64,000 nt of DNA, taken from NCBI GenBank assembly GCA_001798885.1, contig MGQW01000065.1, forward strand, positions 4,660 to 68,659. Reading direction: 5' to 3'. The DNA comes from Deltaproteobacteria bacterium RBG_16_64_85 (lineage in GTDB: Bacteria > Desulfobacterota > Deferrimicrobia > Deferrimicrobiales > Deferrimicrobiaceae). A program made the translations under genes and the position numbers. Below are positions 30,743-55,210 of the stretch, piece by piece (within the stretch, counting starts at the first letter, position 1; the number at the start of each line of letters is the position of its first letter). Under the pieces are notes generated by a model. The model had not been told where the DNA came from, made no database searches, and saw nothing but the letters and a program-made list of their open reading frames with translations.

Positions 30743-31549
30743 GTGCTCTGGAAAAGAGTCGCCACCGCGGCCGTCCTCCTGCCGCTCCTCATCGGGACCG
30801 TCCTGTACGGAAGGGGATGGCCCTTCTCCCTGCTGGCCCTCGCCGTTGCCCTGCTGTGCGCGGTGGAATATTTCCGGATGTTTCTCCCTTCTCCCGCGGA
30901 TCGGTGGCCGGGAATCGCCGCGACCGGCCTGGCCTGCGTCTCGGGCGCGCTGCTCCCGTTTCCGGCGGCCGTCTCCGCCATCCTGCTTTGCGTCGCGTTG
31001 GCGGCGTTCCGCTTTCTTTCCGCCGAAGGGACACCGGAGGAACGGGTCCGGTCCGCCGCCCTCTCCGTCCTGGGGGTGGTGTACGTCGGAGGGTTCCTCT
31101 CGACCTGGCCGCGGACCCTTCTTCTGCCCGTCGGCGAGCACTGGGTGCTCCTGGGGATCGTAGCGGTCGCCGCCGGGGACACCTTCGCGTATTTCGTCGG
31201 GCGCGCGATCGGGAAGCGACCGCTGTCGCCCCGGATGTCCCCGAACAAGACGGTGGAAGGAGCCATCGGAGGGCTTATGGCCAGCGTGCTCTGCTCCGCG
31301 GCGTACGCGGCGGTCTTTCTCCCCGGCATCCGGACCTGGTTCATATTGGGGGCTGCCGCAATCCTGGGATCGGCGGGGCAAGCGGGAGACCTGTTCGAAT
31401 CGATGCTCAAACGGGCCGCCGGGGTGAAGGACAGCGGGAATCTCCTGCCCGGCCACGGCGGGCTGCTCGACCGTGCGGACGGCATCATCGCCGCGGGACC
31501 GGTGCTCCACCTGTTGGCGATCCTCTCCCGGCAGGCCGGAGGAACCTAG
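30743..31549 (+). CDS. cdsA: Phosphatidate cytidylyltransferase
   Basis: CDP-diacylglycerol synthase of 268 residues, with about seven transmembrane helices. The family signature is at the C-terminus: ESMLKRAAGVKDSGNLLPGHGGLLDRADG. GDTFAYFVGRAIGKRPLSPRMSPNKTVEGAIGG is also typical. It supplies CDP-diacylglycerol used by pssA (41411), also in this window. The GTG start is 3 bp after uppS. Its stop codon TAG (31547-31549) is the TAG of the CCTAGTG that begins the nested element at 31545-32053. Confidence 0.95.
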   Translation: MLWKRVATAAVLLPLLIGTVLYGRGWPFSLLALAVALLCAVEYFRMFLPSPADRWPGIAATGLACVSGALLPFPAAVSAILLCVALAAFRFLSAEGTPEERVRSAALSVLGVVYVGGFLSTWPRTLLLPVGEHWVLLGIVAVAAGDTFAYFVGRAIGKRPLSPRMSPNKTVEGAIGGLMASVLCSAAYAAVFLPGIRTWFILGAAAILGSAGQAGDLFESMLKRAAGVKDSGNLLPGHGGLLDRADGIIAAGPVLHLLAILSRQAGGT

Positions 31550-32053
31550 TGGCCCGTCTCGCAAATAACCTGGCATTCGAACGCCGCTGCTGGGGGCCTG
31601 TCCCCGGAAGGGTTTCGTCGCGAGACAAGGGAGACCCGAGGCGAGGCGGGCAAGCGCAGAAGCAAGCGCGGAGGCGTACTTTAAGTACGCCGCACAAGCG
31701 CGCGACGAGCACTCCCGACGCAGCCCGGGGATCGCTTGTCGCAGCAGAAAAGGCAGCTTTTTGGGCGACCGGCGCCTGCGGCTCGGTCTGCACCGCCAGC
31801 CCTTTGTCGGACTCCCTGCGCCCAGCTGCGGCGTGCTTCAAGCACGCCTCGCTGTGCTCGGTCGTCCTTCGCGGTCTGACGGCGCATCCGCTTTGCCTCG
31901 GCTGCCGACCCTTCCGGGGACAGGCCCCTCGCGCCGGCTGCGTTGCGCTCCTTGCGCCGTACTGCTACGAGTACGCCTCAGTCGCGCGCCTTGCCGGACG
32001 CTTTGCCTCGGCGTTCTCGGTGCGTCAGCCTATTTACGAGACGGGACACTAGG
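31545..32053 (+). mobile_element. Type-B inverted-repeat element between cdsA and dxr, carrying nested element C
   Basis: A 509-bp element with 23-bp terminal inverted repeats, 21 of 23 positions matching: CCTAGTG...GTCTCGCAAATA at 31545-31567 and its complement at 32031-32053. Removing the nested C element (31593-31928) leaves about 173 bp, the same core as the B copy at 54427-54631 and the insertion in the long A repeats. It has no believable ORF. It begins in the cdsA stop codon and ends at the base immediately before the dxr ATG. It looks like a non-autonomous MITE or REP-like element; no transposase is present in the window. Confidence 0.85.
31593..31928 (+). mobile_element. Type-C element nested inside the B element
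   Basis: A 336-bp segment with perfect 21-bp terminal inverted repeats (31593-31613 and 31908-31928, beginning GGGGCCTGTCCCC). Inside are two smaller hairpins of similar design: GTACTT-T-AAGTAC flanked by GGC/GCC (about 31674-31692), and GTGCTT-C-AAGCAC flanked likewise (about 31832-31850). No coding region is convincing. Its absence from the B copy at 54427 shows it was added to an existing B element. Confidence 0.85.
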
Positions 32054-33229
32054 ATGAGCGCCCGGAAAGGAGTTGCCGTCCTGGGTTCCACCGGATCGGT
32101 GGGCCGCAGCGCACTCGACGTGATCGCCCGGTTTCCGGGAAGGTTCCGGGTGACGGCCCTGTGCGCCGGGAAGAATGCGAGTCGACTCGGGGAGCAGGCG
32201 CGGCGGTTCCGCCCGTCCCTCGTCTGCCTGGCGGAGGAGCGCTCCGCGGCACAGTTGGGACGCCTTCCGCGGGGAACCCGCGTGGTGTTCGGCGAGCAAG
32301 GGATGACCGAAGCGGTCTGCGCGGACGCGGCCGGAATCGTGCTGGCCGCCGCGTCGGGGGTGTCCTCGATCCGGCCCGTGATCGCGGCGGCAACTCTCGG
32401 GAAGCGGATCGCGCTGGCCAACAAGGAGCTGCTCGTGATGGCGGGCAGGTTCCTCGTCAAGGCCGCCAGGGCGGGTGGGGCCGAAATCCTGCCCGTCGAC
32501 AGCGAGCACTCGGCCGTGTTCCAGGCCGCCTCCGGCCACCGGCGGGAAGACATCCTCCGGATCCTCCTCACCGCCTCCGGAGGGCCGTTCCGGAACCACA
32601 CCTTGCGGCGGATGCGGCGGGCGACGGTCTCCGAGGTGCTCGGCCATCCGACCTGGCGGATGGGGACGAAGATCACGGTCGACTCCGCGACGCTGATGAA
32701 CAAGGGGCTGGAGGTGATCGAGGCGACCTGGCTCTTCGGCCTTCCTCCCTCGAAGATCGACGTGCTCATCCATCCCCAGTCGGTGGTCCACTCGATCGTG
32801 GAGTACCGGGACGGGAGCATGATCGCGCAGTTCGGGGTCCCCGACATGAGGATCCCGATCGGATACGCCCTCTCCTACCCCGAGCGCCTTCCCCTGGAAC
32901 TGCCCAGATTCAAACCGCATCGAATGGACGGATGGACGTTCGAGCCGCCGGACCGGAAACGGTTCCCGGCCCTTTCGATGGCCTACGCCGCGGCGGAGGC
33001 GGGGGGCACGGCCCCCGCGGTCCTTTCCGCCGGGAACGAGGTCGCGGTCGACGCGTTTCTTTCGGGAAGGATCCGGTTCACCGAGATCGTGGAAGTGGTG
33101 GGTTCCCTGATGGCCGGATGGCGGCGGGAAGATCGACCCGTGACCCTTGCCGATGTCCTTCGCGCCGACGCACGGGCGAGGGAGATGGCCGACCTGCTGA
33201 TTCCCAGGAAAAGGAGCCCGCGCCGCTGA
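32054..33229 (+). CDS. dxr: 1-deoxy-D-xylulose 5-phosphate reductoisomerase
   Basis: Second enzyme of the MEP isoprenoid pathway, 391 residues. The NADPH-binding GSTGSVGRSALDVI is at the N-terminus; ALANKELLVMAG, LPVDSEHSAVFQ, which holds the metal-binding D-x-E, and LTASGGPFRNHTL follow, with MNKGLEVIEATWLF and HPQSVVHSIVEYRDGSM completing the active site. The ATG at 32054 directly follows the right terminal repeat of a B element; a longer reading from 31943 uses element sequence and is rejected. No proper Shine-Dalgarno remains apart from element sequence. The stop overlaps rseP (TGATG). Confidence 0.97.
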   Translation: MSARKGVAVLGSTGSVGRSALDVIARFPGRFRVTALCAGKNASRLGEQARRFRPSLVCLAEERSAAQLGRLPRGTRVVFGEQGMTEAVCADAAGIVLAAASGVSSIRPVIAAATLGKRIALANKELLVMAGRFLVKAARAGGAEILPVDSEHSAVFQAASGHRREDILRILLTASGGPFRNHTLRRMRRATVSEVLGHPTWRMGTKITVDSATLMNKGLEVIEATWLFGLPPSKIDVLIHPQSVVHSIVEYRDGSMIAQFGVPDMRIPIGYALSYPERLPLELPRFKPHRMDGWTFEPPDRKRFPALSMAYAAAEAGGTAPAVLSAGNEVAVDAFLSGRIRFTEIVEVVGSLMAGWRREDRPVTLADVLRADARAREMADLLIPRKRSPRR

Positions 33230-34323
33230 TGGATTTCCTCTCTTCCGCATCGCATTTCCTGACGACGCCCATTGCCTTTGTCGTGGTGCTGGGCATCCTG
33301 ATCTTCGTCCACGAGTTCGGGCACTTCATCGTCGCCCGCAGGCTCGGGGTGGGAGTCACGAAATTTTCCTTCGGCTTCGGGCCGAAGCTGTTCGGGGTCC
33401 GGCGGGGGGAGACGGAATACCTCGTCTCGGCGATACCGCTCGGCGGGTACGTGAAGCTCGTCGGGGAGAGCGACGGCGACGACGTTCCGGAACCGCTGCG
33501 GAGCCGGTCGTTTTCCCACAAGCCGGTTTGGGTGAAGATGGCGGTCGTGGCGGCGGGGCCGCTGGGGAACCTCCTTTTCGCGGTCCTGGTCTTCTGGATC
33601 GTCTTCCTCGGCGGAGTCCCCGCGTTGACGCCCAGGATCGGGAACGTTCTGCCCGACTCGCCGGCGGCGCGAGCGGGTCTGAAAGCAGGGGACGTCGTCG
33701 TCCGCATCGGGGGGACCACCATCTCGACGTGGGAGGAGCTGGCCGCGCGGATCAGGCAGGAAGGGGCGGGGAGCGAGCTCTCCATGACCGTGCGCCGGGA
33801 CGGGAAGGAATTCACCGTCAAGGTGTCCCCAGAGATCCGGGAGGGGAAAAACATCTTCGGGGAAAAGGTCCAGGAGCCCAAGATCGGCATCGTCGCCGGA
33901 CAGGAGATCGTCCGGCAGAAGCTGGGCCCCGTGTCGGCGCTTCTCCGCGCGGGGAGGGAAACCGGGAAGCTGGTCGAGTTGACCGGGATGACCGTCGTGA
34001 AGCTTCTGACGCGCGTGCTCCCGTCGGATACCCTCGGGGGGCCGATCCTCATCGCCCAGCTGGCGGGCGACCAGGCGCGGCAGGGGGTCTCCCCGTTCGC
34101 CTACTTCCTCGGGCTGCTCAGCGTGAACCTCGGGATCCTGAACCTTCTGCCCATCCCGATCCTGGACGGTGGGCACCTCCTTTTCTTCTCGATCGAGGCG
34201 CTCCGCCGCAAGCCGCTGTCCCCCCAGGCGCGGGCCCTGGCGCAGCAGGTGGGCCTGGCCATCATCCTGATGCTGACCGCGCTGGTCTTCTACAACGACA
34301 TCGCCCGCCTGGTCTCCCGCTAG
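33229..34323 (+). CDS. rseP: Site-2 protease RseP
   Basis: Membrane zinc protease of 364 residues (S2P family) that cleaves anti-sigma factors after the first cut by DegS-type proteases. The HEFGH active site is in the first transmembrane helix, a PDZ domain occupies roughly 125-200 (SPAARAGLKAGDVVVRIGG), and the second metal motif NLLPIPILDGGH is near the C-terminus. It follows dxr with a one-base overlap, the common bacterial order. The TAG stop is the first TAG of the type-E repeat that follows. Confidence 0.95.
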   Translation: MDFLSSASHFLTTPIAFVVVLGILIFVHEFGHFIVARRLGVGVTKFSFGFGPKLFGVRRGETEYLVSAIPLGGYVKLVGESDGDDVPEPLRSRSFSHKPVWVKMAVVAAGPLGNLLFAVLVFWIVFLGGVPALTPRIGNVLPDSPAARAGLKAGDVVVRIGGTTISTWEELAARIRQEGAGSELSMTVRRDGKEFTVKVSPEIREGKNIFGEKVQEPKIGIVAGQEIVRQKLGPVSALLRAGRETGKLVELTGMTVVKLLTRVLPSDTLGGPILIAQLAGDQARQGVSPFAYFLGLLSVNLGILNLLPIPILDGGHLLFFSIEALRRKPLSPQARALAQQVGLAIILMLTALVFYNDIARLVSR

Positions 34324-34562
34324 GGACATTCCTGGAGAGGGACCTGGCAGGAACACGAAGGGAGCGAGACTCCAACCGTATTCGATAGACGAAGGGGGTT
34401 CGAGCTCCGGGGCAGCGCCGACGAGCAGGAGGATGAGCGGTTAGGGACGGCCGCGGAAGCTGCCGAGACGACCCGCGCAGCCCGGACAGGATGTCCGGGC
34501 GAGAGCGGGCGCAGTCACAAAACCGAGGTGGATGGATCGGAAGAGGATGACAGGACCGTCCC
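34322..34562 (+). repeat. Type-E repeat, long form, spanning the rseP stop and tsaB start
   Basis: Begins AGGGACATTCCTGG in the rseP stop codon and ends CAGGACCGTCCC inside the tsaB N-terminus. The right end closely matches that of the copy at 48548-48643 (GGATCG, then ATGxCAGGACCGTCCCGGTT). The interior of about 240 bp is longer than in other E copies and contains its own hairpin (CCCGGACA-GGA-TGTCCGGG, about 34489-34507) and another TTAGGGACGG start at about 34440. It looks like a composite of two elements. No separate gene is seen in it. Confidence 0.7.
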
Positions 34563-35248
34563 GGTTATTCATTCTCGCCATCGAAACGGCGACGCCGCAC
34601 GGCAGCGTTGCATTGGTCTCGGGGGACGTTGTCCTGGCGGAATCCGCGCTGCCCCGCGGGCGACAGGCATCCGAAACGGTTCTTTCCGCCGTCGACCTGC
34701 TCCTGCGAAATACGGGATCGGGACCCGGCAATGTCGGGCACGTGGCCGTGTCGTCGGGGCCGGGCTCCTTCACGGGCCTGCGGGTGGGAATGGCGGTCGC
34801 CAAGGGGTACTGCTTCGGATGGGGGATCCCGATGGTCCCCGTCCCGACGCTCCACGCGCTGGCGTCGAGGTTCCGGCCCGCAGGGATGACGGTGTGCCCC
34901 GTCCTGGACGCGAAGAAAAAGGAGGTGTATGCCGCCCTGTTCCGTTGGGAGGACGGCAGGTGCAGGAGGCTTTCACCCGACCTGGCGATCGCCCCGGCCG
35001 AGCTTCCCGGGAAGCTGCCGGACGGAACGGTGTTTTTCTGCGGCGACGGCGCCGCACCTTTCGCTCCGCTCTTCCGGGAGCGCCTGGGCGACAGGGCCAT
35101 CTTTCCCCCCGCGGGGGGGGGGCTGCCGAGCGCGGGGGCAGTGGGGCTTCTCGCTGCGGGCCTGGTACGGGCGGGGTCCGTCGTCGACGCTCGCCTGGCG
35201 GTCCCGGCTTACGTACGCCCCTCGGAGGCGGAGCTCAAGCGCAGGTAG
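34547..35248 (+). CDS. tsaB: tRNA threonylcarbamoyladenosine biosynthesis protein TsaB
   Basis: TsaB (YeaZ) of 233 residues, partner of TsaD in making the t6A modification at tRNA position 37. The N-terminal LAIETATPHGSVALV and the SSGPGSFTGLRVGMAVAKGYCFG segment are diagnostic. The family usually starts just before LAIDT, so the ATG at 34547 (MTGPSR) is preferred over 34532; both lie in the type-E repeat, so the first five or six codons are element sequence. The Shine-Dalgarno is poorly placed (GGAAGAGG abuts the ATG). Confidence 0.9.
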   Translation: MTGPSRLFILAIETATPHGSVALVSGDVVLAESALPRGRQASETVLSAVDLLLRNTGSGPGNVGHVAVSSGPGSFTGLRVGMAVAKGYCFGWGIPMVPVPTLHALASRFRPAGMTVCPVLDAKKKEVYAALFRWEDGRCRRLSPDLAIAPAELPGKLPDGTVFFCGDGAAPFAPLFRERLGDRAIFPPAGGGLPSAGAVGLLAAGLVRAGSVVDARLAVPAYVRPSEAELKRR

Positions 35249-35277
35249 GGACAACAGGCCGGATCCTCCCCCTTTAA

Positions 35278-35305
35278 TTGACAATTGGCCGTCCTCTGTT
35301 AAACT
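35278..35305 (+). promoter_or_regulatory. Sigma-70-type promoter before the DUF465 gene
   Basis: A consensus TTGACA (35278-35283), 16-bp spacer and TAAACT (35300-35305). It lies 29 bp after the tsaB stop and about 29 bp before the DUF465 start. The surrounding sequence is AT-richer than the rest of the window, as expected for a promoter. Confidence 0.65.
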
Positions 35306-35333
35306 GAAAAACCATCTCAAATTGGAGGCGCCG

Positions 35334-35549
35334 ATGGGACAAACCCAGGAGGCAAAGATGGCGGCTCTCATCGAAAAGAACCCGGACTTCAAGAACCTGG
35401 TCCAGGAGCACCGGAAGCTGGATGATAAGTTGAAGGAGCTAGACCGGAAGGTGTATTTGACGCCCGACGAGGAAATGGAGCGGAAGCGGCTGCAGAAGCT
35501 CAAGCTGGCCAAGAAGGACCAGATCGCCAGGATACTCACCAGCCAATAG
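35334..35549 (+). CDS. DUF465 (YdcH-type) small coiled-coil protein
   Basis: A 71-residue, highly charged protein, almost entirely helical: PDFKNLVQEHRKLDDKLKELDRKVYLTPDEEMERKRLQKLKLAKKDQI. This matches the DUF465/YdcH family (H-x-L-D-x-x-I/L pattern, then L-x-KKxLxxKD). The function of the family is unknown. The ATG at 35334 has a TTGGAGGCG Shine-Dalgarno, its own promoter and a terminator, so it is a single-gene transcript. The longer in-frame reading would start inside tsaB and is rejected. Confidence 0.85.
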   Translation: MGQTQEAKMAALIEKNPDFKNLVQEHRKLDDKLKELDRKVYLTPDEEMERKRLQKLKLAKKDQIARILTSQ

Positions 35550-35590
35550 GCGGCGGCCCACCGGAAGACCGTTCGATCAGGAACCGGACT

Positions 35591-35627
35591 CCCCTTGGGC
35601 GGAAGGCCCGCACGAGGGGTTTTTTTT
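35591..35627 (+). terminator. Rho-independent terminator after the DUF465 gene
   Basis: CCCCT (35591-35595) pairs with AGGGG (35615-35619), with an inner GGGC/GCCC pair, followed by eight T residues. It lies about 40 bp after the DUF465 stop and upstream of ilvD. Confidence 0.85.
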
Positions 35628-35654
35628 ATCTCGGGAGGGAGCAGCGGGAAAAGG

Positions 35655-37307
35655 ATGCGAAGTGACCGGACGAAAAAGGGTTTGGAGCGGATGCCGCACC
35701 GCGCGCTCTATTGCGCCGCGGGGGTGCCGCAGGCCGCCATGGGGAAACCGTTCATCGGGGTTGCGACCTCGTTCACCGACCTTGTGCCCGGACACGTGGG
35801 GATGCGGAGCCTGGAGCGCGTTATCGAAAACGGTGTCCACGCCGCCGGGGGGTACCCGTTCCTGTTCGGGGTCCCGGCCGTGTGCGACGGGATCGCGATG
35901 GGGCACAAGGGGATGCATTATTCCCTGCCGCTGCGCGAGCTGATCGCCGACATGATCGAGTCCGTCGCCGAGGCCCACGCGCTCGACGGGCTGGTGCTGC
36001 TCACCAACTGTGACAAGATCACCCCCGGGATGCTCATGGCCGCCGCCCGGCTGAACATCCCGTGCATCGTGCTGACGGCCGGCCCCATGCTCTCGGGGCG
36101 GATGGGCGATCGCAGGCTTTCGCTGGTCAGCGACACCTTCGAGGCGGTGGGCCGCTACCAGCGGGGGGAGATCGACGCCCCCACCCTGCGGCATCTCGAG
36201 GCCGAGGCCTGTCCCGGCGAGGGCTCCTGCCAGGGACTTTACACGGCCAACACCATGGCGTGCCTGACCGAAACGCTGGGAATGTCACTGCCGGGCTGCG
36301 CGACCGCTCTGGCGGGGCTGTCCAAAAAGCGGCACCTGGGCTACGCGACCGGCCGGCGGATCGTCGAGCTGGTCCGCAAGGGGATCGTACCCCGGCAGAT
36401 CCTGACCCGAGCCGCGTTCGAGAATGCCATCCGCGTGGACATGGCCCTGGGAGGCTCCTCCAACTCCGTCCTGCACCTTCTTGCGATCGCGCACGAGGCG
36501 GGAGTGCCGCTCCCCCTGTCCGAGTTCGACCGGCTCTCCCGGAAGACCCCGCAGCTCACCACGGTGACGCCGGCGGGCCCGCACATGATGGAGGACATAG
36601 AGTTCTCCGGAGGGATCCCGGCCGTGCTCAACCGCTTGCTCCCCATGCTCAGGAAGAGCAGGACGGTGGCGGGCGAGGACATCACCGCGATCGCCCGGAG
36701 AGGGCGGGTCCTGAATGACGGGATCATCCGGCGTCTCGAAGCACCCGTTCGGAACGAAGGAGGAATCGCCATCCTCACCGGCAACCTGGCGCCCGGCGGG
36801 GCGGTCATCAAGCAGTCCGGCGTCGACCCTTCCGTGTTCAGGTTCCGGGGAAAGGCCAAGGTGTTCGATTCGGAGGAAGCCGCCATGGCGGCGATCATGT
36901 CCGGGAGGATCCGGCCCGGCAGGGTCGTGGTCATCCGGTACGAAGGCCCGAAGGGAGGCCCGGGGATGCGCGAGATGCTCTCGCCCACCGCGGCAATCAT
37001 GGGGATGGGGCTGGGCACGAAGGTGGCGCTCATCACCGACGGACGCTTTTCGGGGGGGACGCACGGGCCGTGCATCGGCCACATCTCTCCCGAGGCGATG
37101 GAAGGGGGGCCGATCGCTCTCGTCCGGGACGGGGACGCGATCGTCCTCGACATTCCGAGGCGGAAGCTCACCCTCGACGTCCCGGCGGCGGAGCTCGCCC
37201 GTCGCAGGAAGTCGTGGAGAGCCCCGAGGCCCAAGATCGCAGCCGGGTACCTGGCCCGGTACGCAAGGCTCGTCCGCTCGGCGGGGACGGGCGCGGTGAT
37301 TACCTAG
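35655..37307 (+). CDS. ilvD: Dihydroxyacid dehydratase
   Basis: Fe-S dehydratase of 550 residues giving the 2-oxo acids of valine and isoleucine synthesis. Cluster cysteines lie in [14 protein letters not shown] and [16 protein letters not shown]; the latter wording is the non-enteric subtype (enteric enzymes have GACGGMYTANTM). The C-terminal [19 protein letters not shown] is typical. The ATG at 35655 follows GGGAAAAGG; the upstream reading would start inside the terminator hairpin. Its TAG stop is shared with the following type-E repeat. First gene of the branched-chain cluster. Confidence 0.96.
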
Positions 37308-37402
37308 GGACGGTCCTGGATGAGGGCTTGGCAGGCCCACAAAGGGATCGATGTCACACGACAGAGGTTGATAAAGAACCAGGGGCCGCCAGGACCGTCC
37401 CT
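37306..37402 (+). repeat. Type-E inverted-repeat element between ilvD and ilvB
   Basis: A 97-bp element with perfect 14-bp arms, AGGGACGGTCCTGG (37306-37319) and CCAGGACCGTCCCT (37389-37402). The interior (GGATCGATGTCACACGACAG) is shared with the copy at 48548-48643. It starts in the ilvD TAG stop codon. A degenerate half copy follows at 37412-37450. Confidence 0.85.
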
Positions 37403-37411
37403 GGGTTGTAA

Positions 37412-37450
37412 CGATCCTGGTAAAGGACTTGGCAGGCCACAAGGAGGATG
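37412..37450 (+). repeat. Degenerate half copy of the type-E repeat carrying the ilvB Shine-Dalgarno
   Basis: CGATCCTGG...GGACTTGGCAGGCCACAAGGAGGATG lines up with CGGTCCTGG...GGGCTTGGCAGGCCCACAAAGGGATCG of the full copy 100 bp upstream. The AAGGAGG (37441-37447) used to start ilvB falls in the stretch where the full element reads AAAGGGA. The other inverted arm is missing. Confidence 0.6.
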
Positions 37451-37452
37451 CA

Positions 37453-39147
37453 GTGAAGATGACGGGAGCGGAAATATTCGTCAAGGCGCTGGCGGACCTG
37501 GGCGTGGATGTGGTGTTCGGCTACCCCGGCGGGGCGGTCCTGCACATCTACGACGAGCTGTTCAAGAACACGAAAGTCCGCCACTACCTGACCCGCCACG
37601 AGCAGGGGGCCGTCCACATGGCCGACGGCTACGCACGGGCGTCGGGGAAGACCGGCGTGTGCCTCGTGACCTCCGGCCCCGGGGCGACGAACACGGTGAC
37701 CGGCATCGCCACCGCGTACATGGATTCGATCCCCATCGTCGTGTTCTCCGGCCAAGTGCCGACGCTGATGATCGGGAACGACGCGTTCCAGGAGGCCGAC
37801 ATCGTCGGAATCACCCGGCCGTGCACGAAGCACAACTACCTGGTCAAGGAAGCGAAGGACCTGGCCCGCATCATGAAGGAGGCCTTCTACATCGCCTCCA
37901 CCGGGCGGCCGGGGCCCGTGCTCGTCGACATCCCCAAGGATATCCTTATGGCCTCGTCGGAGTACGCCCTACCGAAGGAGGTCAACGTGCGCGGATACCA
38001 CCCGACCTACGAGGGGCACCCCCGGCAGGTGGAGAGCGCGGTCCGCCTGATCCGGGAGAAGGAGCGCCCCGTCCTCTACGCGGGCGGCGGCGTCATCCTT
38101 TCCGATTCCTCCCGGCAGCTCGTCGAGTTCGCGCACATCCTGGGAATCCCGGTCACGACGACCCTGATGGGGATGGGGGCGTTTCCGGGAACGGACCCCC
38201 TGTACATGGGGATGCTGGGGATGCACGGGACCTATTCGGCCAACATGGCGATCTCCCACAGCGACCTGATCATCGCCGTGGGAGCGCGGTTCGACGACCG
38301 GGTAACGGGGAAAGTGGACGAATTCGCCCCCCACGCCAAGATCATCCACGTCGACATCGACCCGACCTCCATCCAGAAGAACGTCCCCGTCGACATCCCG
38401 ATCGTGGGAGACCTCAAGGACGTGCTGAAGAAGATGATCAAGCTCGTCAAAGGGACGAAGGAGGCCGCGCGGTACCGGGAGAAGATCACCCCGTGGCGGG
38501 AGCAGGTCGGGAAGTGGGCCGCGACCCACCCCCTTTCCTACAAGCCGTCCAAGGGCAAGATCAAGCCGCAGCACGTGGTCGAGCAGATCTACTCGCTCAC
38601 CAAGGGGGAGGCGATCATCACTACGGAGGTCGGGCAGAACCAGATGTGGGCGGCCCAGTTCTACAAGTTCGACCGCCCGCGCACCTTTCTGTCCTCCGGG
38701 GGGCTGGGGACGATGGGGTACGGCTTCCCCGCCGCCATCGGCGCCCAGGTGGCCATGCCGGGCAGGCTCGTCATCGACGTGGCGGGCGACGGCAGCATCC
38801 AGATGAACATCCAGGAGCTGGCGACGGCCGTCCAGTACCGACTTCCCGTGAAAGTGGTCATCCTCAACAACGGGGCGCTGGGGATGGTCCGCCAGTGGCA
38901 GGAGCTCTTTTTCCAGGGGAAGTACTCCCAGACCTGCCTTCCCCAGATCCCGGACTTCGTCAAGCTGGCGGAGGCGTACGGCGCGGCCGGGTTTCGCGCA
39001 ACCCGCCCGGAGGAGGTACGGGAGGTGCTGAAAAGAGGGTTCGCCGTCCAGGGGCCCGTGTTCATCGATGTCCTGACGGACCCGAACGAGATGGTCTACC
39101 CGATGGTGCCCGCCGGGGCGCCCTTGACGAAGATGCTGCTCGTCTGA
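37453..39147 (+). CDS. ilvB: Acetolactate synthase, large subunit
   Basis: Thiamine-diphosphate enzyme of 564 residues, the first common step of branched-chain synthesis. The N-terminal [25 protein letters not shown] and the catalytic glutamate in [14 protein letters not shown] are present. [15 protein letters not shown] plus [16 protein letters not shown] is the thiamine-diphosphate/Mg site. The GTG at 37453, five bases after AAGGAGG, is preferred to the ATG at 37459 and to a TTG at 37429 inside the repeat. The regulatory subunit gene ilvN follows after 32 bp. Confidence 0.96.
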
Positions 39148-39179
39148 CGGGAACGCTGCGCGAGTAAGGAGAGAGGGCG

Positions 39180-43436: not shown

Positions 43437-43481
43437 TGCTGCGCGCAGATGCCGGAAGGCGCCACGCTAGACCCCATTCAG

Positions 43482-43763
43482 CTGCACCGCCTCGGAGGGG
43501 GACTCCGTTCGTGGCTCGCCGTGCGATGGACCCGCACGGCTGCGCTCCGGCCTCCAGGGGGCCATTCCCTCAGATCCCGGCATTCGAGGGCCGCTGCATC
43601 CACTCCGGCTTCGTCGCCCTCTCTCGCCGTACCGCAGCGGGTACGCCTCGGTCGGGCGCCTCGCCGGACGCGGCGCATCGACCCTCTCGGTGCGCGGGCT
43701 CTTCGGCAACGGCACCCTGGAGACCGGCTCACTGCGCCCCCCTCCTGCGGCGGCTCCGCCGGA
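43482..43763 (+). repeat. Type-A repeat, long form, copy 2 (A with B-like insertion)
   Basis: Nearly identical to 16489-16770 in the same orientation. The insertion occupies about 43552-43722, flanked by CCGG (43547-43550 and 43724-43727), with inverted ends CTCCAGGGGGCC and GGCACCCTGGAG. It lies between leuC and leuD. The remaining gap, 43764-43940, contains no feature I can support; it leads into the leuD start region. Confidence 0.85.
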
Positions 43764-43940
43764 CCCTCCTGCTTCGTGCGCTTTCCATTGATGGCGCATA
43801 CCGCCGCGGCTGCAAGTTCCCTTTCCTCGCGGGATGACGCAGCGGAGAGGAAGCCCCCCCGAGGAATCAAGCGGAACCAGGAATCGGACCCGATCGCGGC
43901 GATGGCTGCGGCGAGGAAACCACTGAACGGAGCGGAGCGC

Positions 43941-45532: not shown

Positions 45533-45579
45533 GCGCGACGAAACGCATTCCGGAAAAACACAATAGGAGAGGTGAAGCG

Positions 45580-46611
<1,032 letters not shown>

Positions 46612-46625
46612 GCCTGACCCCGAGG

Positions 46626-47369: not shown

Positions 47370-47398
47370 GCGCCGCGATCGGCTGCGTTCCCTGGTTA

Positions 47399-47505
47399 CG
47401 GCGGAGCCGCCGCAGGAGGGGGGCGAAGTGAGGTAAAGCCCAGACGTGCGGGTCCACCGCACGTCGAGCCACGAGCGGAGTCCCCCTCCGGGGCGGCACA
47501 GCCGG
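47399..47505 (-). repeat. Type-A intergenic repeat, short form, copy 2 (inverted)
   Basis: About 107 bp. Read on the minus strand it starts CCGGCTGTGCCGCCCCGG, runs through AGGGGGACTCCGCTCGTGGC and ends CCTGCGGCGGCTCCGCCG, closely matching the short copy at 2476-2585. It lacks the B-like insertion. It lies between truA and the rplM promoter. Confidence 0.8.
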
Positions 47506-47557
47506 TATGGCATGCACGTGAACAGCAGACGGGGTGAGGCGGACGGGCAAATTCTCC

Positions 47558-47586
47558 TTGACGGTGAGCGCCCGCTGGGATCTAAT
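47558..47586 (+). promoter_or_regulatory. Sigma-70-type promoter of rplM-rpsI
   Basis: TTGACG (47558-47563), a 17-bp spacer and TCTAAT (47581-47586): five of six consensus bases in each box. Predicted transcription start near 47593, about 30 bp before the rplM ATG. One of the best promoter matches in the window. Confidence 0.7.
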
Positions 47587-47621
47587 ATACCCTTTGATTT
47601 CCAGGGAGATGGTTTGCGCCG

Positions 47622-48059: not shown

Positions 48060-48076
48060 GAGAGGATTCCGGCAAA

Positions 48077-48472: not shown

Positions 48473-48507
48473 GCATCGAGGGCGAGATGCCCCGTCGAAC
48501 GATTCCC

Positions 48508-48547
48508 GAAGGGGAAGGCCGCTACCGCCGCCTTCCCCTTCTTTTTT
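48508..48547 (+). terminator. Rho-independent terminator after rpsI
   Basis: A perfect 12-bp stem, GAAGGGGAAGGC (48508-48519) and GCCTTCCCCTTC (48530-48541), a 10-base loop and six T residues. The following type-E element begins directly after the T-tract. Confidence 0.95.
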
Positions 48548-48643
48548 AGGGACGGTCCTGCCTGAGGGCATGGCGGAACAACAAATGGATCGAGGTCACA
48601 CGACAGGGGATGATGGATCGACAGGCGATGTCAGGACCGTCCC
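48548..48643 (+). repeat. Type-E inverted-repeat element between rpsI and argC
   Basis: A 96-bp element with arms AGGGACGGTCCTG (48548-48560) and CAGGACCGTCCC (48632-48643). The interior shares GGATCGAGGTCACACGACAG with the copy at 37306-37402. It sits immediately after the rpsI terminator and 28 bp before argC. Confidence 0.85.
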
Positions 48644-48670
48644 GGTTCTTATGACTCCAAGGAGAGAAAC

Positions 48671-49711
48671 ATGAAGCGGGTCGCTATATTCGGCGCGACG
48701 GGATACACCGGGTTCGAACTCATCCGGCTCCTGCTGTCCCATCCTCGCGCGAAGATCTCGGCGCTGACCTCCGAGCAATACTCCGAACAGCCGGTCGAAC
48801 AGGCGTTTTCCCCCTTCCGCGGGAAGCTCGCCGGCGTCGCCTTCGGGAAGACGGAGAAGATGCTTTCCGCCGGCTTCGACGCCGCCTTCCTGGCATTGCC
48901 CCACACGGTCTCGGCGCCCGTGGCCGAGGCGCTTTTCGGGAGGGGGATCCCGGTCGTCGACCTCTCGGCGGATTTCCGCTTCCGGAGCATCCCGCTGTAC
49001 GAATCGGTCTACGGCGTTACGCACAAGAGCCCCGGCGTGAGCGGCAAGGCGGTCTACGGACTGCCCGAGGTGTACCGGGAGGCCCTGCGGAATACGCGGC
49101 TGGCGGCGGTCCCAGGCTGCTTCCCCACGGCGGTCATCCTCGCTCTCTACCCGCTGCTCAAGGAGGGCCTGATCGAGCGGAAGGGGATCGTGGCCGATTG
49201 CAAGACCGGCGTCTCCGGCGGCGGGAGAAGCCCCTCGCTCGGGTTCCACTACCCTGAAGTCGAAGGGGGAGTAAGGCCCTACGGGCTGCCGAAGCACCGC
49301 CATAACCCCGAGATGGACCAGGAGCTCACCCTCGCCGGCGGGGAAAAGGTCTCGATCACCTTCGTCCCCCACCTGATCCCGATGGTCCGGGGGATCCTGG
49401 CGACCTGCTACGCCACGCTCCGGCCGAAGATCTCCCACGAGGCGGTGGAGAAGGCGTATCGCAAGCATTACGGTAAGGAGCCCTTCGTGCGGCTGTGCCC
49501 GCCGGGCGTTCTTCCCTCCACCAAAGACGTGGCCGGGAGCAACGATTGCGACATCGCCTTCCGAACCGATGCGAAGACGCGGCGGGTGGTGGTCGTCTCC
49601 GTCATCGACAATCTCGTGAAGGGGGCCTCGGGGGCAGCCGTCCAGTGCTTCAACCTGATGATGGGATTCCCGGAGGAGGACGGACTCCGGGCGGCCCCCC
49701 TCTTCCCGTGA
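48671..49711 (+). CDS. argC: N-acetyl-gamma-glutamyl-phosphate reductase
   Basis: NADPH-dependent third step of arginine synthesis, 346 residues. GATGYTGFELIRLLLSHP is the cofactor loop, the catalytic cysteine lies in VPGCFPTAVILAL, and HRHNPEMDQEL and TFVPHLIPMVRGI are family segments. CAAGGAGAGAAAC precedes the ATG. With argJ at 25218 this gives two arginine genes in the window, but not adjacent. The end overlaps kdsB (GTGA). Confidence 0.96.
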   Translation: MKRVAIFGATGYTGFELIRLLLSHPRAKISALTSEQYSEQPVEQAFSPFRGKLAGVAFGKTEKMLSAGFDAAFLALPHTVSAPVAEALFGRGIPVVDLSADFRFRSIPLYESVYGVTHKSPGVSGKAVYGLPEVYREALRNTRLAAVPGCFPTAVILALYPLLKEGLIERKGIVADCKTGVSGGGRSPSLGFHYPEVEGGVRPYGLPKHRHNPEMDQELTLAGGEKVSITFVPHLIPMVRGILATCYATLRPKISHEAVEKAYRKHYGKEPFVRLCPPGVLPSTKDVAGSNDCDIAFRTDAKTRRVVVVSVIDNLVKGASGAAVQCFNLMMGFPEEDGLRAAPLFP

Positions 49712-50457
49712 GCCCTTCCCCGAAAGGCGTGGCGGTGGTGATCCCCGCCCGGTACGCGTCGACGCGGCTGCCGGGGAAGCCCCTGGCCCAAATAGACGGT
49801 CGTCCGATGATATGGTATGTTTGGGAAAAGGCAAGGAAATCCCGGTTTGCCTCACGGATTGTCGTGGCCACCGACGACGAGCGCATCGCAGCGGCGGTCC
49901 GCGGATTCGGGGGCGAGGCGAGGATGACCTCGCCTGACTGCGCCTCGGGGACGGACCGGGTGGCCGAGACGGCGCGGGGCCTTGCCGAGGAGATCATCGT
50001 CAACCTGCAGGGCGACGAGCCGATGATGCACCCCTCCGTTATAGACGCGGTGGTTGCCCCCCTGCTCGACGACCCGGCGGTTTCGATGACGACGGCAGCC
50101 CTCCCCCGGGAGGATCCGGAGGAGTTCCTCCTCCCTTCCGTGGTGAAGGTGGTCGTTGACGACCGCGGGGATGCGCTCTACTTTTCCCGTTCCTCCATCC
50201 CCCATTACCGGGACACCGGGTTCGGAAGGTACCGCAAGCACCTGGGGATCTACGGATACAGGAAAGATTTCCTGTTCACCGTCGCCGCCCTCCCCCCGGC
50301 TTCCCTGGAATCGGCGGAACGGCTGGAGCAGCTGCGGGTGCTGCAGAGCGGTCACAAGATCCGCGTCGTCGACGTGGAGTTCGACTCGGTGGGGGTCGAC
50401 ACCCCCGAGGATCTGTACGCCGTCAAGGAGAGGCTATGCGGGCGGAACGAACGGTAA
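49708..50457 (+). CDS. kdsB: 3-deoxy-manno-octulosonate cytidylyltransferase
   Basis: Activates Kdo as CMP-Kdo for lipid A core assembly; 249 residues. [17 protein letters not shown] is the nucleotide-binding start, and [21 protein letters not shown] and [12 protein letters not shown] are typical. The C-terminal [14 protein letters not shown] plus GVDTPEDL completes the family pattern. The GTG at 49708 overlaps the argC stop. pyrG starts 22 bp inside its end. First of four Kdo genes grouped around pyrG. Confidence 0.96.
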
Positions 50458-52067
50458 AGCCGAAGTTCATCTTCGTGACCGGGGGCGTCGTGTCCTCCCT
50501 TGGGAAGGGGCTTGCGGCCGCCTCGATCGGAGCGCTCCTCGAAGCCCGGGGCCTGAAGATCACGATGCTCAAGCTCGACCCCTACATCAACGTCGACCCC
50601 GGAACGATGAACCCGTTCCAGCACGGCGAGGTGTTCGTGACCGACGACGGCGCCGAAACCGACCTCGACCTGGGGCACTACGAACGGTACGTCTCCTCGC
50701 GGATGGGGAAGAAGAACAACTGCACCACGGGCAAGATCTACCACTCGGTGATCACGAAGGAGCGGCGCGGCGACTACCTGGGCGGCACGGTCCAGGTCAT
50801 CCCCCACATCACGGACGAGATCAAGCGGGTCATCAGCGCGGCGGCCCAGGGCTACGACCTCGCGATCGTCGAGGTCGGCGGCACCGTGGGCGACATCGAG
50901 AGCCTTCCGTTCCTGGAAGCGATCCGGCAGGTCCGGACGGACCGCGGGAAGGAGAACGTCCTTTACGTCCACGTCACGCTCGTCCCCTACATCGGCACGG
51001 CGGGGGAGCTGAAGACGAAACCCACCCAGCACAGCGTGAAGGAGCTGCGCTCCATCGGCATCCAGCCCGACGTCCTGTTGTGCCGATGCGAACGGCCGCT
51101 GCCCAAGGACATCAAGGCGAAGATCGCGTTATTCTGCAACGTGACCGAGGACGCGGTCATCACCGCTCGGGACGTGGAGCAGATCTACGAGCTGCCCCTG
51201 GTCTTCCACCAGGAAGGACTGGACGACAAGATCATGGAGTCCCTGAACATCTGGGCGGGCGAGCCAAGGCTCGACGCATGGTCGAAGATCATGGAGAAGT
51301 GGAAGAATCCGGTGGGCGAAGTCACGATCGCCATCGTCGGGAAGTACGTGAACCTGCGCGAGTCGTACAAGAGCCTGAACGAGGCTCTGACGCACGGCGG
51401 GATTGCCCACTCGGTCCGGGTCCTGCACCGGTACGTGGACTCCGAGGAGGTCGAGCGGCAGGGGGCCGAGGCGCTTCTGAAGGGGGCCGACGGGATCCTG
51501 GTCCCCGGAGGGTTCGGGTCGCGCGGAGTGGAAGGGAAGATCGCCTCCGTGCGGTACGCCCGGGAAAACCGCATCCCCTTCTTCGGCATCTGCCTCGGGA
51601 TGCAAGTGGCCGTGGTGGAATTTGCCCGGAACGTGTGCGGCCTCCCGGCGGCCACCAGCCGGGAACTCGACGCGGAGAGCGAGTGCGCGGTCATCGACCT
51701 CATGCCGGACCAGCGCGGGGTGGTGGAGAAGGGAGCGACGATGCGGCTCGGGGCGTACCCCTGCTCCCTCGCCGAGAAATCGCTCGCCCGCAAGGCGTAC
51801 GCCGCCGCGGAGGTCTCGGAGCGGCACCGGCACCGCTACGAATTCAACAACGAGTTCCGGGAGGCCCTTTCCGCCAGGGGGCTGCGGATCACCGGCCTGT
51901 CGCCGGACGGGCGCCTCGTGGAGATCGTGGAGATCCAGGACCATCCCTGGTTCCTGGGCTGCCAGTTCCACCCCGAGTTCCAGTCGCGGCCGATGGCGCC
52001 CCACCCCCTCTTCCGCGATTTCATCGGCGCCGCCTACACCGTTTCCCGGAGACAGGGGGTATCGTGA
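50436..52067 (+). CDS. pyrG: CTP synthase
   Basis: Makes CTP from UTP with glutamine; 543 residues, a full-length two-domain enzyme. The N-terminal synthase domain carries [27 protein letters not shown] and [39 protein letters not shown]-type residues. The C-terminal class I amidotransferase has the cysteine in [16 protein letters not shown] and the histidine/glutamate pair in [10 protein letters not shown]. Its position between kdsB and kdsA is common and links CTP supply to CMP-Kdo formation. Confidence 0.98.
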
Positions 52068-52915
52068 TCCGTCAAGTCGAGATCGCGGGGCGGTTCCGGA
52101 TCGGGGCGGGGAACCCGCCGGCCTTCATCGCCGGACCGTGCGTCCTGGAGTCGGAGAGCCTCGCGATGGCCGTGGCGGAGTTTCTTTCGGGGCTGGCCAC
52201 CCGCCTGTGCGTTCCCCTCATCTTCAAGGGTTCCTTCGACAAGGCGAACCGCTCCTCGGGCCGGTCTTCCCGCGGGCCCGGGCAGGAGGAGGGACTGCGC
52301 ATCCTGGGGGAGGTGAAGCGGAAGTTCCGCGTTCCGGTGACCACAGACGTGCACGAGCCGAAACAGGTTGCCGCGGTGGCAGCGGTGGTCGACCTTCTCC
52401 AGATCCCGGCCCTCCTGTGCCGCCAGACCGATCTGCTGGTGGCGGCGGGCGAGACGGGCCTGCCGGTCAACATCAAGAAGGGGCAGTTCATGGCGCCATG
52501 GGACATGGAAAACGCCGTGGAGAAGGTGACGTCGACCGGGAATTCCGCCGTCCTGGTCACGGAGCGGGGAACCACGTTCGGCTACAACAACCTGGTCGTC
52601 GATTACCGCGGGCTGCCCGCCATCCGGGAGGGGATCTGCCCGGTGATCTTCGACGCAACGCACAGCGTCCAGCTCCCGGGCGGAGCGGGAAAGGTTTCCT
52701 CCGGCGATCGCCGGTTCGTCGCACCCCTCGCCCGCGCAGCCGTGGCGGCGGGGGTGGACGGCGTGTTCCTCGAGGTCCATCCGGACCCGAGCCGGGCCCT
52801 TTCCGACGGTCCCAACAGCCTGCCGCTTGACGACGTGGAGCCGCTCCTGCGGACCCTCCTCGCGATCCGCGAGGCGGCGGAGTCCGGGGCGGCCGGGAAA
52901 GGAGAAGGGACATGA
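52064..52915 (+). CDS. kdsA: 2-dehydro-3-deoxyphosphooctonate aldolase (KDO 8-P synthase)
   Basis: Condenses arabinose 5-phosphate and phosphoenolpyruvate; 283 residues. The start contains [14 protein letters not shown], with cysteine where the E. coli (metal-independent) enzyme has asparagine, pointing to the metal-dependent class. [44 protein letters not shown] and [11 protein letters not shown] are standard. The GTG start overlaps the pyrG stop, and the end overlaps kdsD. Confidence 0.96.
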
Positions 52916-53883
52916 CCCGCAACCTGACCGGGCGCGCCGCACGGGTGCTCTCCATCGAGGCGGAAGGGCTTCTCGCGCTGCGGGAGAAGCTCGACCATCA
53001 TTTCACCCGGGCCGTCGAGATGCTGCTGCGCGCACCCGGCAAGGTGATCGTTACCGGAATGGGGAAGTCCGGGCTCATCGGCCGAAAGGTCGCAGCGACC
53101 CTGGCGTCCACCGGAACGCCGGCCTTCTTTCTCCACCCGGCGGAAGGGCTCCACGGCGACATCGGGATGGTCCTCAAAGGGGACGTCGTCATCGCGCTCT
53201 CGAACTCGGGCGAGACCCAGGAAGTCGTGCGGCTCCTCCCCGTCTTCAAGCGGTTGGGGCTCGAGCTCATCGCCCTGACGGGAAACCCGCAGTCCACCCT
53301 CGCCCGTCACGCCGACGCCGTGATCGACGTCGGGGTCCACGAGGAGGCGTGCCCGATGGGCCTGGCCCCGACGGCCTCCACCACGGCGGCACTGGCGATG
53401 GGGGACGCGCTCGCGGTCGTGCTGTTCGAGGAGAAAGGGTTTTCCGAGCAGGACTTCGCGATGCTTCACCCTGGCGGCATCTTGGGCCGAAAGCTCCTCA
53501 TGGTGGAGGAGCTGATGCACACCGGCGAGGAGATCCCCCTGGTCTCCTGCGAAACGCCGCTCAAGGATGCACTGTTCACGATCAGCTCCAAGCGGCTGGG
53601 TGTCACGGGGGTCCTCAACGGATCCGGTACCCTGGTCGGGGTGATCACGGACGGGGATGTCCGCCGGGCCATGGAGAAGGGGGTCGATCTCTTCGGCGCG
53701 CGCGCGGAAGAGGTGATGTCGATCCGCCCCAAGCGCATCTCCTCCTCGGATCTCGCCGCTTCCGCACTGCGGAAAATGGAGGAACATTCGATCACGAGCC
53801 TCTTCGTCTTCGACGCGGTGGAGGCGGAACTGTTGGTGGGCATCGTCCACGTCCACGATCTTCTGAAGGCAGGGGTCGGATGA
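52912..53883 (+). CDS. kdsD: D-arabinose 5-phosphate isomerase
   Basis: A 323-residue protein with an N-terminal SIS sugar-isomerase domain (GKVIVTGMGKSGLIGRKVAATLASTGTPAFFLHPAEGLHGDIG, ALSNSGET) and two CBS domains at the C-terminus (from about residue 205). It turns ribulose 5-phosphate into arabinose 5-phosphate, the substrate of KdsA encoded just upstream. Overlaps kdsA and kdsC by 4 bp each. KpsF paralogues have the same fold, but the LPS context favours KdsD. Confidence 0.94.
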   Translation: MTRNLTGRAARVLSIEAEGLLALREKLDHHFTRAVEMLLRAPGKVIVTGMGKSGLIGRKVAATLASTGTPAFFLHPAEGLHGDIGMVLKGDVVIALSNSGETQEVVRLLPVFKRLGLELIALTGNPQSTLARHADAVIDVGVHEEACPMGLAPTASTTAALAMGDALAVVLFEEKGFSEQDFAMLHPGGILGRKLLMVEELMHTGEEIPLVSCETPLKDALFTISSKRLGVTGVLNGSGTLVGVITDGDVRRAMEKGVDLFGARAEEVMSIRPKRISSSDLAASALRKMEEHSITSLFVFDAVEAELLVGIVHVHDLLKAGVG

Positions 53884-54431
53884 GCGTCCCCCTGCTTCGG
53901 CCCGATGCCGCGGAGAAGGCGGCCAGGGTACGTCTCTTCCTGGTCGACGTGGACGGAGTCCTTACCGATGGGGGGATCGTCTACGACGGCGGCGGGCGGG
54001 AGATCAAGCGCTTCCACGTCCGGGACGGGCACGGCATCAAGATGCTCCAGCGTGCCGGCATCGAAGTGGGCATCATCACCGGGCGGACGTCGGAGGTGGT
54101 CGCGGTCCGGGCGAAGGAGCTGGACATTTCCCTTGTCCGCCAGGGGGTGAGGGACAAGGTGGCCGCCTGGCGGGAGATCCTCGCGGGAAAAGGCGTCTCC
54201 CCCGGGGAGACCGCCTATGTGGGCGACGACATCGTGGACGTGCCCCTGATGCGGAGGGTGGGGTTCGCCGCGTCAGTGGCGGATGCGGAAAGCTACGTGC
54301 GGGAAGCGGCCGATTACGTTTCCACGCGGGCCGGAGGCCAGGGCGCCGTCCGTGAGATTATCGAGTTTGTCCTGCGGTCCAGCGGGGCGTGGGAGAAGGT
54401 CGCCTCCAAGTACTTCGCGGCCGGGCCCTAG
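53880..54431 (+). CDS. kdsC: 3-deoxy-D-manno-octulosonate 8-phosphate phosphatase
   Basis: HAD-type C0 phosphatase of 183 residues, without a cap domain and acting as a tetramer. DVDGVLTDGGIVYDGGGREIKRFHVRDGHGIKML is diagnostic, with nucleophile and acid aspartates in DVDG; IITGR and YVGDDIVDVPLMRRVG are motifs II and IV. It removes phosphate from Kdo 8-phosphate before KdsB acts. The TAG stop (54429-54431) lies inside the left terminal repeat of a B element. Confidence 0.95.
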   Translation: MSVPLLRPDAAEKAARVRLFLVDVDGVLTDGGIVYDGGGREIKRFHVRDGHGIKMLQRAGIEVGIITGRTSEVVAVRAKELDISLVRQGVRDKVAAWREILAGKGVSPGETAYVGDDIVDVPLMRRVGFAASVADAESYVREAADYVSTRAGGQGAVREIIEFVLRSSGAWEKVASKYFAAGP

Positions 54432-54631
54432 TGCACCGTCTCGCAAATATCTTGGCATTCGAGCGCCGCTGCAGCAGCGAAGGCTTCGTTGCGCTCCTTC
54501 ACTCGGGGGACACTCTTGGTTTTCTCGTCGAGTGAACAAAGAGTGTCCCCCGCCACCTCAGTCGCGCGCCTTGCCGGCGCTTTGCCTCGACGCTCTCGGT
54601 GCGTCAAGCTATTTACGAGACGGTACACCAG
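54427..54631 (+). mobile_element. Type-B inverted-repeat element between kdsC and lptC, carrying a D hairpin
   Basis: A 205-bp element. The ends CCTAGTG...GTCTCGCAAATA (54427-54449) and TATTTACGAGACGG...CAG (54610-54631) are inverted repeats like those of 31545-32053. The flanking core (CATTCGAGCGCCGCTGC, GTCGCGCGCCTTGCCGG, CTCTCGGTGCGTCA) is shared. In the middle, a D-type hairpin with perfect 13-bp arms (GGGGGACACTCTT, 54505-54517; AAGAGTGTCCCCC, 54539-54551) replaces the central GTACT/AGTAC hairpin of the other copy. It starts at the kdsC stop and ends one base before the lptC ATG. Confidence 0.85.
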
Positions 54632-55210
54632 ATGACGCGCCGCTGGATGATCTCCTTCGGGGCGCTGTTCGCGGTTCTGGGAGGAATCGGGCTTCTGGCC
54701 GCGATTTCCTCGAAGGGCCCCGGTCCGCAGGGGCCCTGGGAACCGTCCGACGCCGGAGCGCCGTCCGAGCCGGAAGTCATCCTCCGGAACGTGGAAATGC
54801 GGGAGATCCGGAACGAGGGAGCACCGTACCGGCTTTTCTCGGACCAGGCCACCTACCTGCTCCTGGCGGGCAGGTTTTCCGCCACCGGCGTGATCCTCGT
54901 GCTGCCGGGCGGTGTCGGGGAGGTCGTCGTTCGCGCCCCGAAGGCCTCCTGGGACATGCAGAATGGGCAGATCTTCCTTCCCGAAGGAGGTTCCGCCGAA
55001 AACGACACCGGGTGGTCCGCCGCGATCTCCACCGCAAACCTTTCCCTCCCTGAGCGGATTCTGACCGCGACAGGGAAAGCCAGTCTTTCAGGCCCGGGGC
55101 TCTCGGTGGTGGGAGACAACCTGGTCTGGCACTGGAGGGAGGGGAAGGTGTCGCTCGAGATGCCGAAGACCCGGCTAGAGCCTTCCCTGGCATTTCGAAG
55201 GAGGGGGTGA
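54632..55210 (+). CDS. lptC: LPS export protein LptC
   Basis: A 192-residue bitopic protein: an N-terminal transmembrane anchor (MISFGALFAVLGGIGLLAAIS) and a periplasmic beta-jellyroll (LRNVEMREIRNEGAPYRLFSDQATYLL and on). It links the LptBFG extractor to the LptA bridge. Sequence conservation in LptC is low; order and shape make the call. The ATG at 54632 directly abuts the right end of a B element; a GTG at 54599 would translate element sequence. No good Shine-Dalgarno is visible. Confidence 0.85.
   Translation: MTRRWMISFGALFAVLGGIGLLAAISSKGPGPQGPWEPSDAGAPSEPEVILRNVEMREIRNEGAPYRLFSDQATYLLLAGRFSATGVILVLPGGVGEVVVRAPKASWDMQNGQIFLPEGGSAENDTGWSAAISTANLSLPERILTATGKASLSGPGLSVVGDNLVWHWREGKVSLEMPKTRLEPSLAFRRRG

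What the first reader, a model, noticed from the sequence alone, without database searches (positions are those of the whole stretch)
31545..54634. Elements fit exactly into stop-start junctions
Four elements begin in a TAG stop codon (cdsA 31547, rseP 34321, ilvD 37305, kdsC 54429); the TAG belongs to the element end (CCTAGTG or TAGGGAC). Two B elements end on the very base before the next ATG (dxr 32054, lptC 54632). Operons elsewhere in the window have 1-30-bp overlaps, so these elements fill what was probably a tight junction without harming either protein. This could be target choice (a CTAG-like site at stop codons) or strong selection on random insertion.
Basis: partly seen in the sequence, partly recalled or inferred. 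Interest (0 to 1): 0.75.

Follow-up and report, generated by a model that had tools for sequence, protein, structure and literature searches.

The report
Mobile palindromes inserted at CTAG stop codons
Small palindromic mobile elements sit exactly at gene stop codons because one family jumps into the very rare sequence CTAG, which here survives outside genes largely as a TAG stop codon, and its first base (G) rebuilds the stop; the in-operon insertions are therefore mostly explained by target choice plus loss of insertions inside genes.

Summary
The "B" elements (cdsA/dxr, kdsC/lptC) are IS630/Tc1-mariner-like MITEs: ends TA|GTGCACCGTCTCGYAAATA…TATTTRCGAGACGGTRCAC|TA with a 2-bp TA duplication, preferentially in CTAG. 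Relatives without the element keep a stop codon at the same position, so the TA of each "TAG" is host target and only the G is element. CTAG is very rare here (24 in 400 kb against about 186 expected), and about half of non-coding CTAGs are stop codons (17/35). B copies match that (31 of 60 non-coding sites; p=0.83) but far exceed a TA-only null (p=7e-10). So target choice, plus loss of insertions inside genes, accounts for the exact fit; no stop-codon sensing is needed. The tight junction existed first: relatives have TAG-G-ATG (cdsA) and TAG-ATG or TAA-ATG (kdsC).

The "A" elements (rseP, ilvD) are a different family: 102 bp, no visible duplication, inserted right after the TA of TAA/TAG stops or at terminator T-tracts, always in one orientation. 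Their target rule and enzyme remain unknown. "Without harming either protein" is not fully right: tsaB now starts inside an A element.

The parts
31547..31548 (+). TA target (left copy of TA duplication) = first two bases of the cdsA stop codon; empty in G011 as CACTAGGATGG
31549..32049 (+). B element, long form (501 bp) between cdsA and dxr; terminal repeats GTGGCCCGTCTCGCAAATA / TATTTACGAGACGGGACAC
   Evidence: same 497-502 bp form in G020 and G001
31592..31929 (.). Inner palindrome (GGGGGCCTGTCCCC..GGGGACAGGCCCC) carried in the long B form
   Evidence: sequence; folding
32050..32051 (+). Right copy of TA duplication; host GG follows, dxr ATG at 32054
34321..34322 (+). TA of the rseP stop codon, left flank of A element; TAG or TAA at the same place in four relatives without it
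34323..34569 (+). Degenerate double A element between rseP and tsaB; supplies the tsaB start codon (ATG 34532 or 34547)
37305..37306 (+). TA of the ilvD stop codon, left flank of A element
37307..37408 (+). A element (GGGACGGTCCTG..CAGGACCGTCCC + TGGGTTG) between ilvD and ilvB; a partial second copy follows (about 37409-37450)
48549..48650 (+). A element after the rpsI terminator T-tract, not at a stop codon
54429..54430 (+). TA target in the kdsC stop codon
54431..54628 (+). B element (198 bp) between kdsC and lptC with nested GGGGGACACTC palindrome at 54505-54551
54629..54631 (+). Right target remnant (TA changed to CA) and host G; lptC ATG at 54632

Best explanation
B elements are non-autonomous DNA transposons (MITEs) of the IS630/Tc1-mariner type. 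They insert at TA, preferentially within CTAG, duplicating the TA. In these 65% GC genomes CTAG is strongly avoided, and outside coding sequence about half of all CTAGs are a TAG stop codon preceded by C. Because the terminal repeat starts with G, the target TA plus this G always re-forms TAG (turning TAA into TAG when the target was TAA), so the upstream protein ends unchanged; the second TA lies on the far side, immediately before the old downstream sequence. Where the old junction was tight, the element ends a few bases before the next start codon. Insertions inside genes are under-represented, consistent with purifying selection. Shown: TA duplication, CTAG preference, empty sites, matching background. 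Inferred: that an IS630-type transposase moved them. A elements share the 'TA + first base G remakes TAG' outcome, but through a different and unidentified insertion mechanism without target duplication.
For: 74 non-redundant B copies from one bacterial family: flanks CTA|TAG in 34, CTA|CAG in 6, both TAs intact in 43. Empty sites: L156 site in G013 GCCGCTA|GCGG; L113 site in G011 AGAACTA|GGACG; L135 site in G007 TGTTA|CAGC (TTAC, which shows a 2-bp and not a 4-bp duplication); emrA, where nine relatives carry TAA or TAG at the same codon while G000 has GTA|G..C|TAA. The cdsA and kdsC junctions are empty with TAG in G011 and in G001/G010. Of 14 B sites at stops with relatives spanning the junction, 13 have at least one relative with a stop codon at the same position (exception L129). 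CTAG: 24 observed against 186 by a Markov estimate in 400 kb of G013; non-coding CTAGs at stops 6/14 (G013) and 11/21 (G000). B non-coding sites at stops 31/60: p=0.83 against CTAG, 7e-10 against all non-coding TA. IS630 transposases (NF033545; DDE_3 and HTH domains) occur in the family; one in G014 has ends TA|GTGTAGTCCGTCACAAATAATGG, 12/19 identical to B in fixed register (P about 5e-4) with the same CAAATA at positions 14-19. G013 and G023 have no IS630 hit and no B match. IS630 preference for TA in CTAG: Tenzen and Ohtsubo 1991, cited in PMC6811581; TA duplication by IS630-family ISY100: PMC2170065.
Against: No transposase gene flanked by the exact B terminal repeats was found, and G000's own IS630 copy (C57, split reading frame) has different ends. 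G007 has many B copies but no IS630 hit. A B2 subfamily shows 3-bp TTA/TAA repeats instead of TA. cdsA C-termini are divergent: only 2 of 11 relatives have a stop at the aligned place. The gene caller is home-made, and some 'inside' calls are probably errors at gene ends. B copies were found by similarity to one query, so the sample is not complete. The background CTAG sample is small (62 sites).
Confidence: 0.86

Rival explanations
1. Random insertion at TA or anywhere, followed by strong selection that keeps only insertions leaving both proteins intact.
For: Coding insertions are under-represented (14/74 against 27/62 for CTAG, p=0.0025).
Against: Selection on random intergenic TA predicts about 16% at stops, not 52% (p=7e-10), and does not predict CTAG flanks (34-40 of 74) or CTAG in empty relatives. 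Tight junctions are not avoided: B-hit stops have nearer downstream starts than TAG stops in general (median 22.5 against 44 bp, p=0.02).
Confidence: 0.06
2. The element's terminal TAG supplies the stop: elements inserted at or before the 3' end, truncated the gene, and their own TAG took over.
For: Two A copies (acnA on C28, and C19) end 2 or more codons before their relatives' stops.
Against: At nearly all B stop sites and most A stop sites, relatives without the element stop at the same codon; TA lies outside the element (43 of 74 keep TA on both sides).
Confidence: 0.04
3. B belongs to an IS5-type group with a 4-bp YTAR (CTAG) target duplication rather than IS630 with TA.
For: Most B sites read CTAG on both sides; a 4-bp CTAG/YTAA duplication is reported for MITEPsy1, whose repeats resemble ISPsy2 of the IS5 family (PMC3189936).
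Against: L135 (empty TTAC in G007, filled TTA..TAC) and emrA (relatives TAA, filled GTA..TAA) fit only a 2-bp TA duplication; IS630 ends in the same family resemble the B ends.
Confidence: 0.04

Closest known systems
IS630 / Tc1-mariner family insertion sequences (IS630 of Shigella sonnei, ISY100)
   Same: TA duplication; preference for TA within CTAG (Tenzen and Ohtsubo 1991); terminal inverted repeats of about 20-25 bp; IS630 copies with similar ends live in the same bacterial family
   Different: B carries no transposase; the exact cognate transposase was not found; long GC-rich palindromic interior; B2 subfamily shows 3-bp repeats
IS630-derived bacterial MITEs (RUP of pneumococcus, Correia elements; from memory)
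   Same: short, non-autonomous, TA-flanked, multi-copy, mostly intergenic
   Different: as far as I know not described as concentrated at stop codons; B was found only in this one family (no match in 16 genomes of other families)
Chunjie MITE of Geobacter uraniireducens
   Same: a 235-bp MITE inserted in an operon (paper title: 'without disturbing the operon structure'; cited in review PMC10969869)
   Different: original paper not held, so target and stop-codon relation could not be compared; no sequence comparison made
REP elements with RAYT (Y1_Tnp) transposases, as a model for A
   Same: A is a short hairpin with a GGGAC-type stem, no target duplication, one orientation
   Different: the resident Y1_Tnp gene is flanked by another repeat (GGGACGTTCTTAAACTTTT), not by A

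Membership tests
IS630-type MITE (for B) | 2-bp TA target duplication | tested here: met
   43/74 intact TA..TA; empty sites with a single TA, including non-palindromic TTAC and GTAA
IS630-type MITE (for B) | terminal inverted repeats matching an IS630 element in the same genomes | tested here: inconclusive
   G014 IS630 ends 12/19 identical, same register and CAAATA; no exact match
IS630-type MITE (for B) | no transposase gene of its own, short internal part | tested here: met
   about 160-505 bp, palindromic, no transposase
IS630-type MITE (for B) | mobilised by an IS630 transposase in trans | not testable with these tools
   needs an experiment; transposases present in some genomes, absent from B-bearing G007
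IS630-type MITE (for B) | TA within CTAG preferred (IS630 proper) | tested here: met
   CTA|TAG 34, CTA|CAG 6 of 74 although CTAG occurs only about 0.05-0.1 per kb
IS5-type (YTAR) MITE (for B) | 4-bp YTAR duplication | tested here: not met
   TTA..TAC with empty TTAC; GTA..TAA
REP/RAYT element (for A) | RAYT gene flanked by the same repeats | tested here: not met
   Y1_Tnp loci carry a different repeat
IS200/IS605-like (for A) | insertion 3' of a fixed short target without duplication, strand-specific | tested here: inconclusive
   A nearly always follows TA (few CA/AA), no duplication seen at the L065 and L077 empty sites, one orientation; cognate enzyme unknown

The most novel reading that the evidence does not exclude
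The A family (102 bp, GGGACGGTCC..GGACCGTCCCTGTTTTT) is moved by an unidentified strand-specific mechanism that lands at gene 3' ends: right after the TA of TAA/TAG stops or at terminator T-tracts, always in the gene's direction, beyond what TA or CTAG availability explains, perhaps because translation or transcription termination exposes single-stranded DNA there.
Probability: 0.25. Interest if true: 0.65.

Novelty: new member of a known kind. Interest (0 to 1): 0.5.

Why it matters
It shows how a mobile element can enter the middle of essential operons without changing the upstream protein: the avoided tetranucleotide CTAG survives outside genes largely as stop codons, and an element that targets CTAG and starts with G rebuilds the stop wherever it lands. 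This makes a testable link between CTAG avoidance, stop-codon usage and transposon safety, and warns against reading exact junction fits as evidence of function.

Tried and rejected
A simple codon-score gene caller called antisense shadows and was replaced by a frame-aware one. Search for an IS630 transposase with exact B ends in 24 genomes: not found. TAGTGCACTA scars (a collapsed B element) were counted family-wide: 10 sites, of which three (G002, G009, G018) share one conserved flank that looks like ribosomal RNA; the reversed control pattern is as frequent, so the count proves nothing, though two sites (G007 at the stop where G017 has an element; G011 at the ilvD stop) are convincing by position. 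A scar of GTG+CAC is better explained by deletion between the palindromic GTGCAC ends than by IS630 excision, which cuts 2 nt inside the 5' ends. RAYT as mover of A: its flanks carry another repeat. Rfam: nothing. Papers on stop-codon insertion of CTAG-targeting elements: none found in the held library.

Full report
What is there. The window contains two unrelated palindromic families at operon junctions. Family B (cdsA/dxr 31549-32049, kdsC/lptC 54431-54628) has inverted ends GTGCACCGTCTCGYAAATA. Family A (rseP/tsaB 34323-34569, ilvD/ilvB 37307-37408, and 48549-48650) is GGGACGGTCCTG..CAGGACCGTCCC followed by a T-rich tail. The gene names are right: cdsA, dxr and TsaB by Pfam/NCBIfam, rseP, ilvD, ilvB and kdsC by NCBIfam; lptC has no family hit and rests on position.

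Observation. All four in-frame TAGs are at the stated coordinates. Searching the window's genome (G000) and its family gave 74 non-redundant B copies. In 31 the flanking TA is the TA of a called gene's stop codon, 17 on one strand and 14 on the other. Of 19 intact A copies, 10 are the same, all in one orientation.

Target. B flanks read CTA|TAG in 34 copies and CTA|CAG in 6. Sites not in CTAG fix the duplication at two bases: L135 reads TTA..TAC and the empty relative reads TTAC; G000 emrA reads GTA..TAA where relatives have a TAA (or TAG) stop. Empty sites with an intact CTAG are seen for L156 (G013), L113 (G011), cdsA (G011: CACTA|GGATG) and kdsC (G001: GCCTA|GGGG). So the TA belongs to the host, the G to the element. 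Of 14 B stop sites that could be compared, 13 have at least one relative with a stop codon at the same position; L129 is the exception, and cdsA is divergent (2 of 11 relatives).

Why stop codons. In 400 kb of G013, a relative without B elements, CTAG occurs 24 times against about 186 expected from CTA and TAG counts. Of the CTAGs classified there, 6 of 20 are stops, 8 intergenic, 6 coding; in 400 kb of G000, 11 of 42 are stops. Leaving coding sites aside, 17 of 35 CTAGs are stops, against 31 of 60 B sites: p=0.83. Against all non-coding TAs (138 of 880 at stops in G013) the B excess is p=7e-10. B copies are rarer inside genes than CTAGs are (p=0.0025), consistent with purifying selection. Background TAG stops followed by a co-directional gene lie a median of 44 bp from it; B-hit stops 22.5 bp (p=0.02), so tight junctions are not avoided.

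What B is. TA duplication, CTAG preference and end structure point to IS630/Tc1-mariner. IS630 transposases occur in several genomes of the family; the G014 copy L319 (DDE_3, HTH) ends in TA|GTGTAGTCCGTCACAAATAATGG, 12 of 19 identical to B in the same register. IS630's CTAG preference is published (Tenzen and Ohtsubo 1991, via PMC6811581), and ISY100 shows the TA duplication in vitro (PMC2170065). The mover itself is inferred.

A elements. Empty sites for L065 (TAG in G001, G020, G013), L077 (TAG in G000) and L059 (TAA in G013, G020) show that A enters right after the TA of a stop. Comparison at L065 puts the right border after TGTTTTT, with no duplication. At acnA and C19 the A-supplied TAG ends the gene earlier than in relatives. 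Other A copies follow terminator T-tracts. The one-sided orientation may be selection: without a duplication, an insertion on the other strand would push the stop codon to the far side. TA alone does not explain the A stop excess (10/19 against 138/880, p=3e-4), so the A target rule is open.

Consequences for the downstream genes. TsaB: relatives start with TTG or GTG where G000 has TTC; the G000 frame now opens at ATG 34532 or 34547 inside the A element, adding 8-13 residues before the family profile begins at residue 14. dxr: the GGAGG at the cdsA end, 8 nt before ATG in the reconstructed empty site, is now about 500 nt away; in the folded transcript the element closes as a hairpin at CCUAGUG/CACUAGG, which could bring both sides together again (function not tested).

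Limits. The gene caller is home-made, the CTAG background is small, copies come from similarity searches, and no insertion was observed in action.

Noticed in passing
window 34532-34570: tsaB has lost its native TTG/GTG start (now TTC) and appears to start inside the A element, giving an 8-13 residue N-terminal extension encoded by the element.
   Followed up: partly
window 37409-37460: The ilvB Shine-Dalgarno (CACAAGGAGG) appears to derive from a partial second A copy; A elements also sit at the ilvD/ilvB junction in G004, G019 and G022.
   Followed up: partly
window 16488-16782, 43481-43776, 47394-47507, 2482-2629: Another repeat family (C) shares B's inner core (CATTCGA..GCCGCTGC, CTCTCGGTGC) but has different outer stems (CTCCAGGGGGCCATTCCCTCAGATCCC).
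   Followed up: no
L213 (G007), L286/L314 (G011): CTAGTGCACTAG scars at a 2-oxoacid dehydrogenase E2-like gene's stop and at the ilvD stop look like B elements collapsed between their palindromic GTGCAC ends.
   Followed up: partly
L097, L136, L170, L120, L036: A B2 subfamily (ends GTGCTTCATTTCATAAATACGG) has 3-bp TTA or TAA repeats instead of the 2-bp TA of B1.
   Followed up: no
L416-L420: A Y1_Tnp (RAYT-like, about 350 aa) gene in several genomes is flanked by repeats GGGACGTTCTTAAACTTTTTA, a further palindromic family.
   Followed up: no
window 31592-31929; 54505-54551: Both window B elements contain further nested palindromes (GGGGCCTGTCCCC type, GGGGGACACTC type); the long form recurs as a unit in G020 and G001.
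   Followed up: partly
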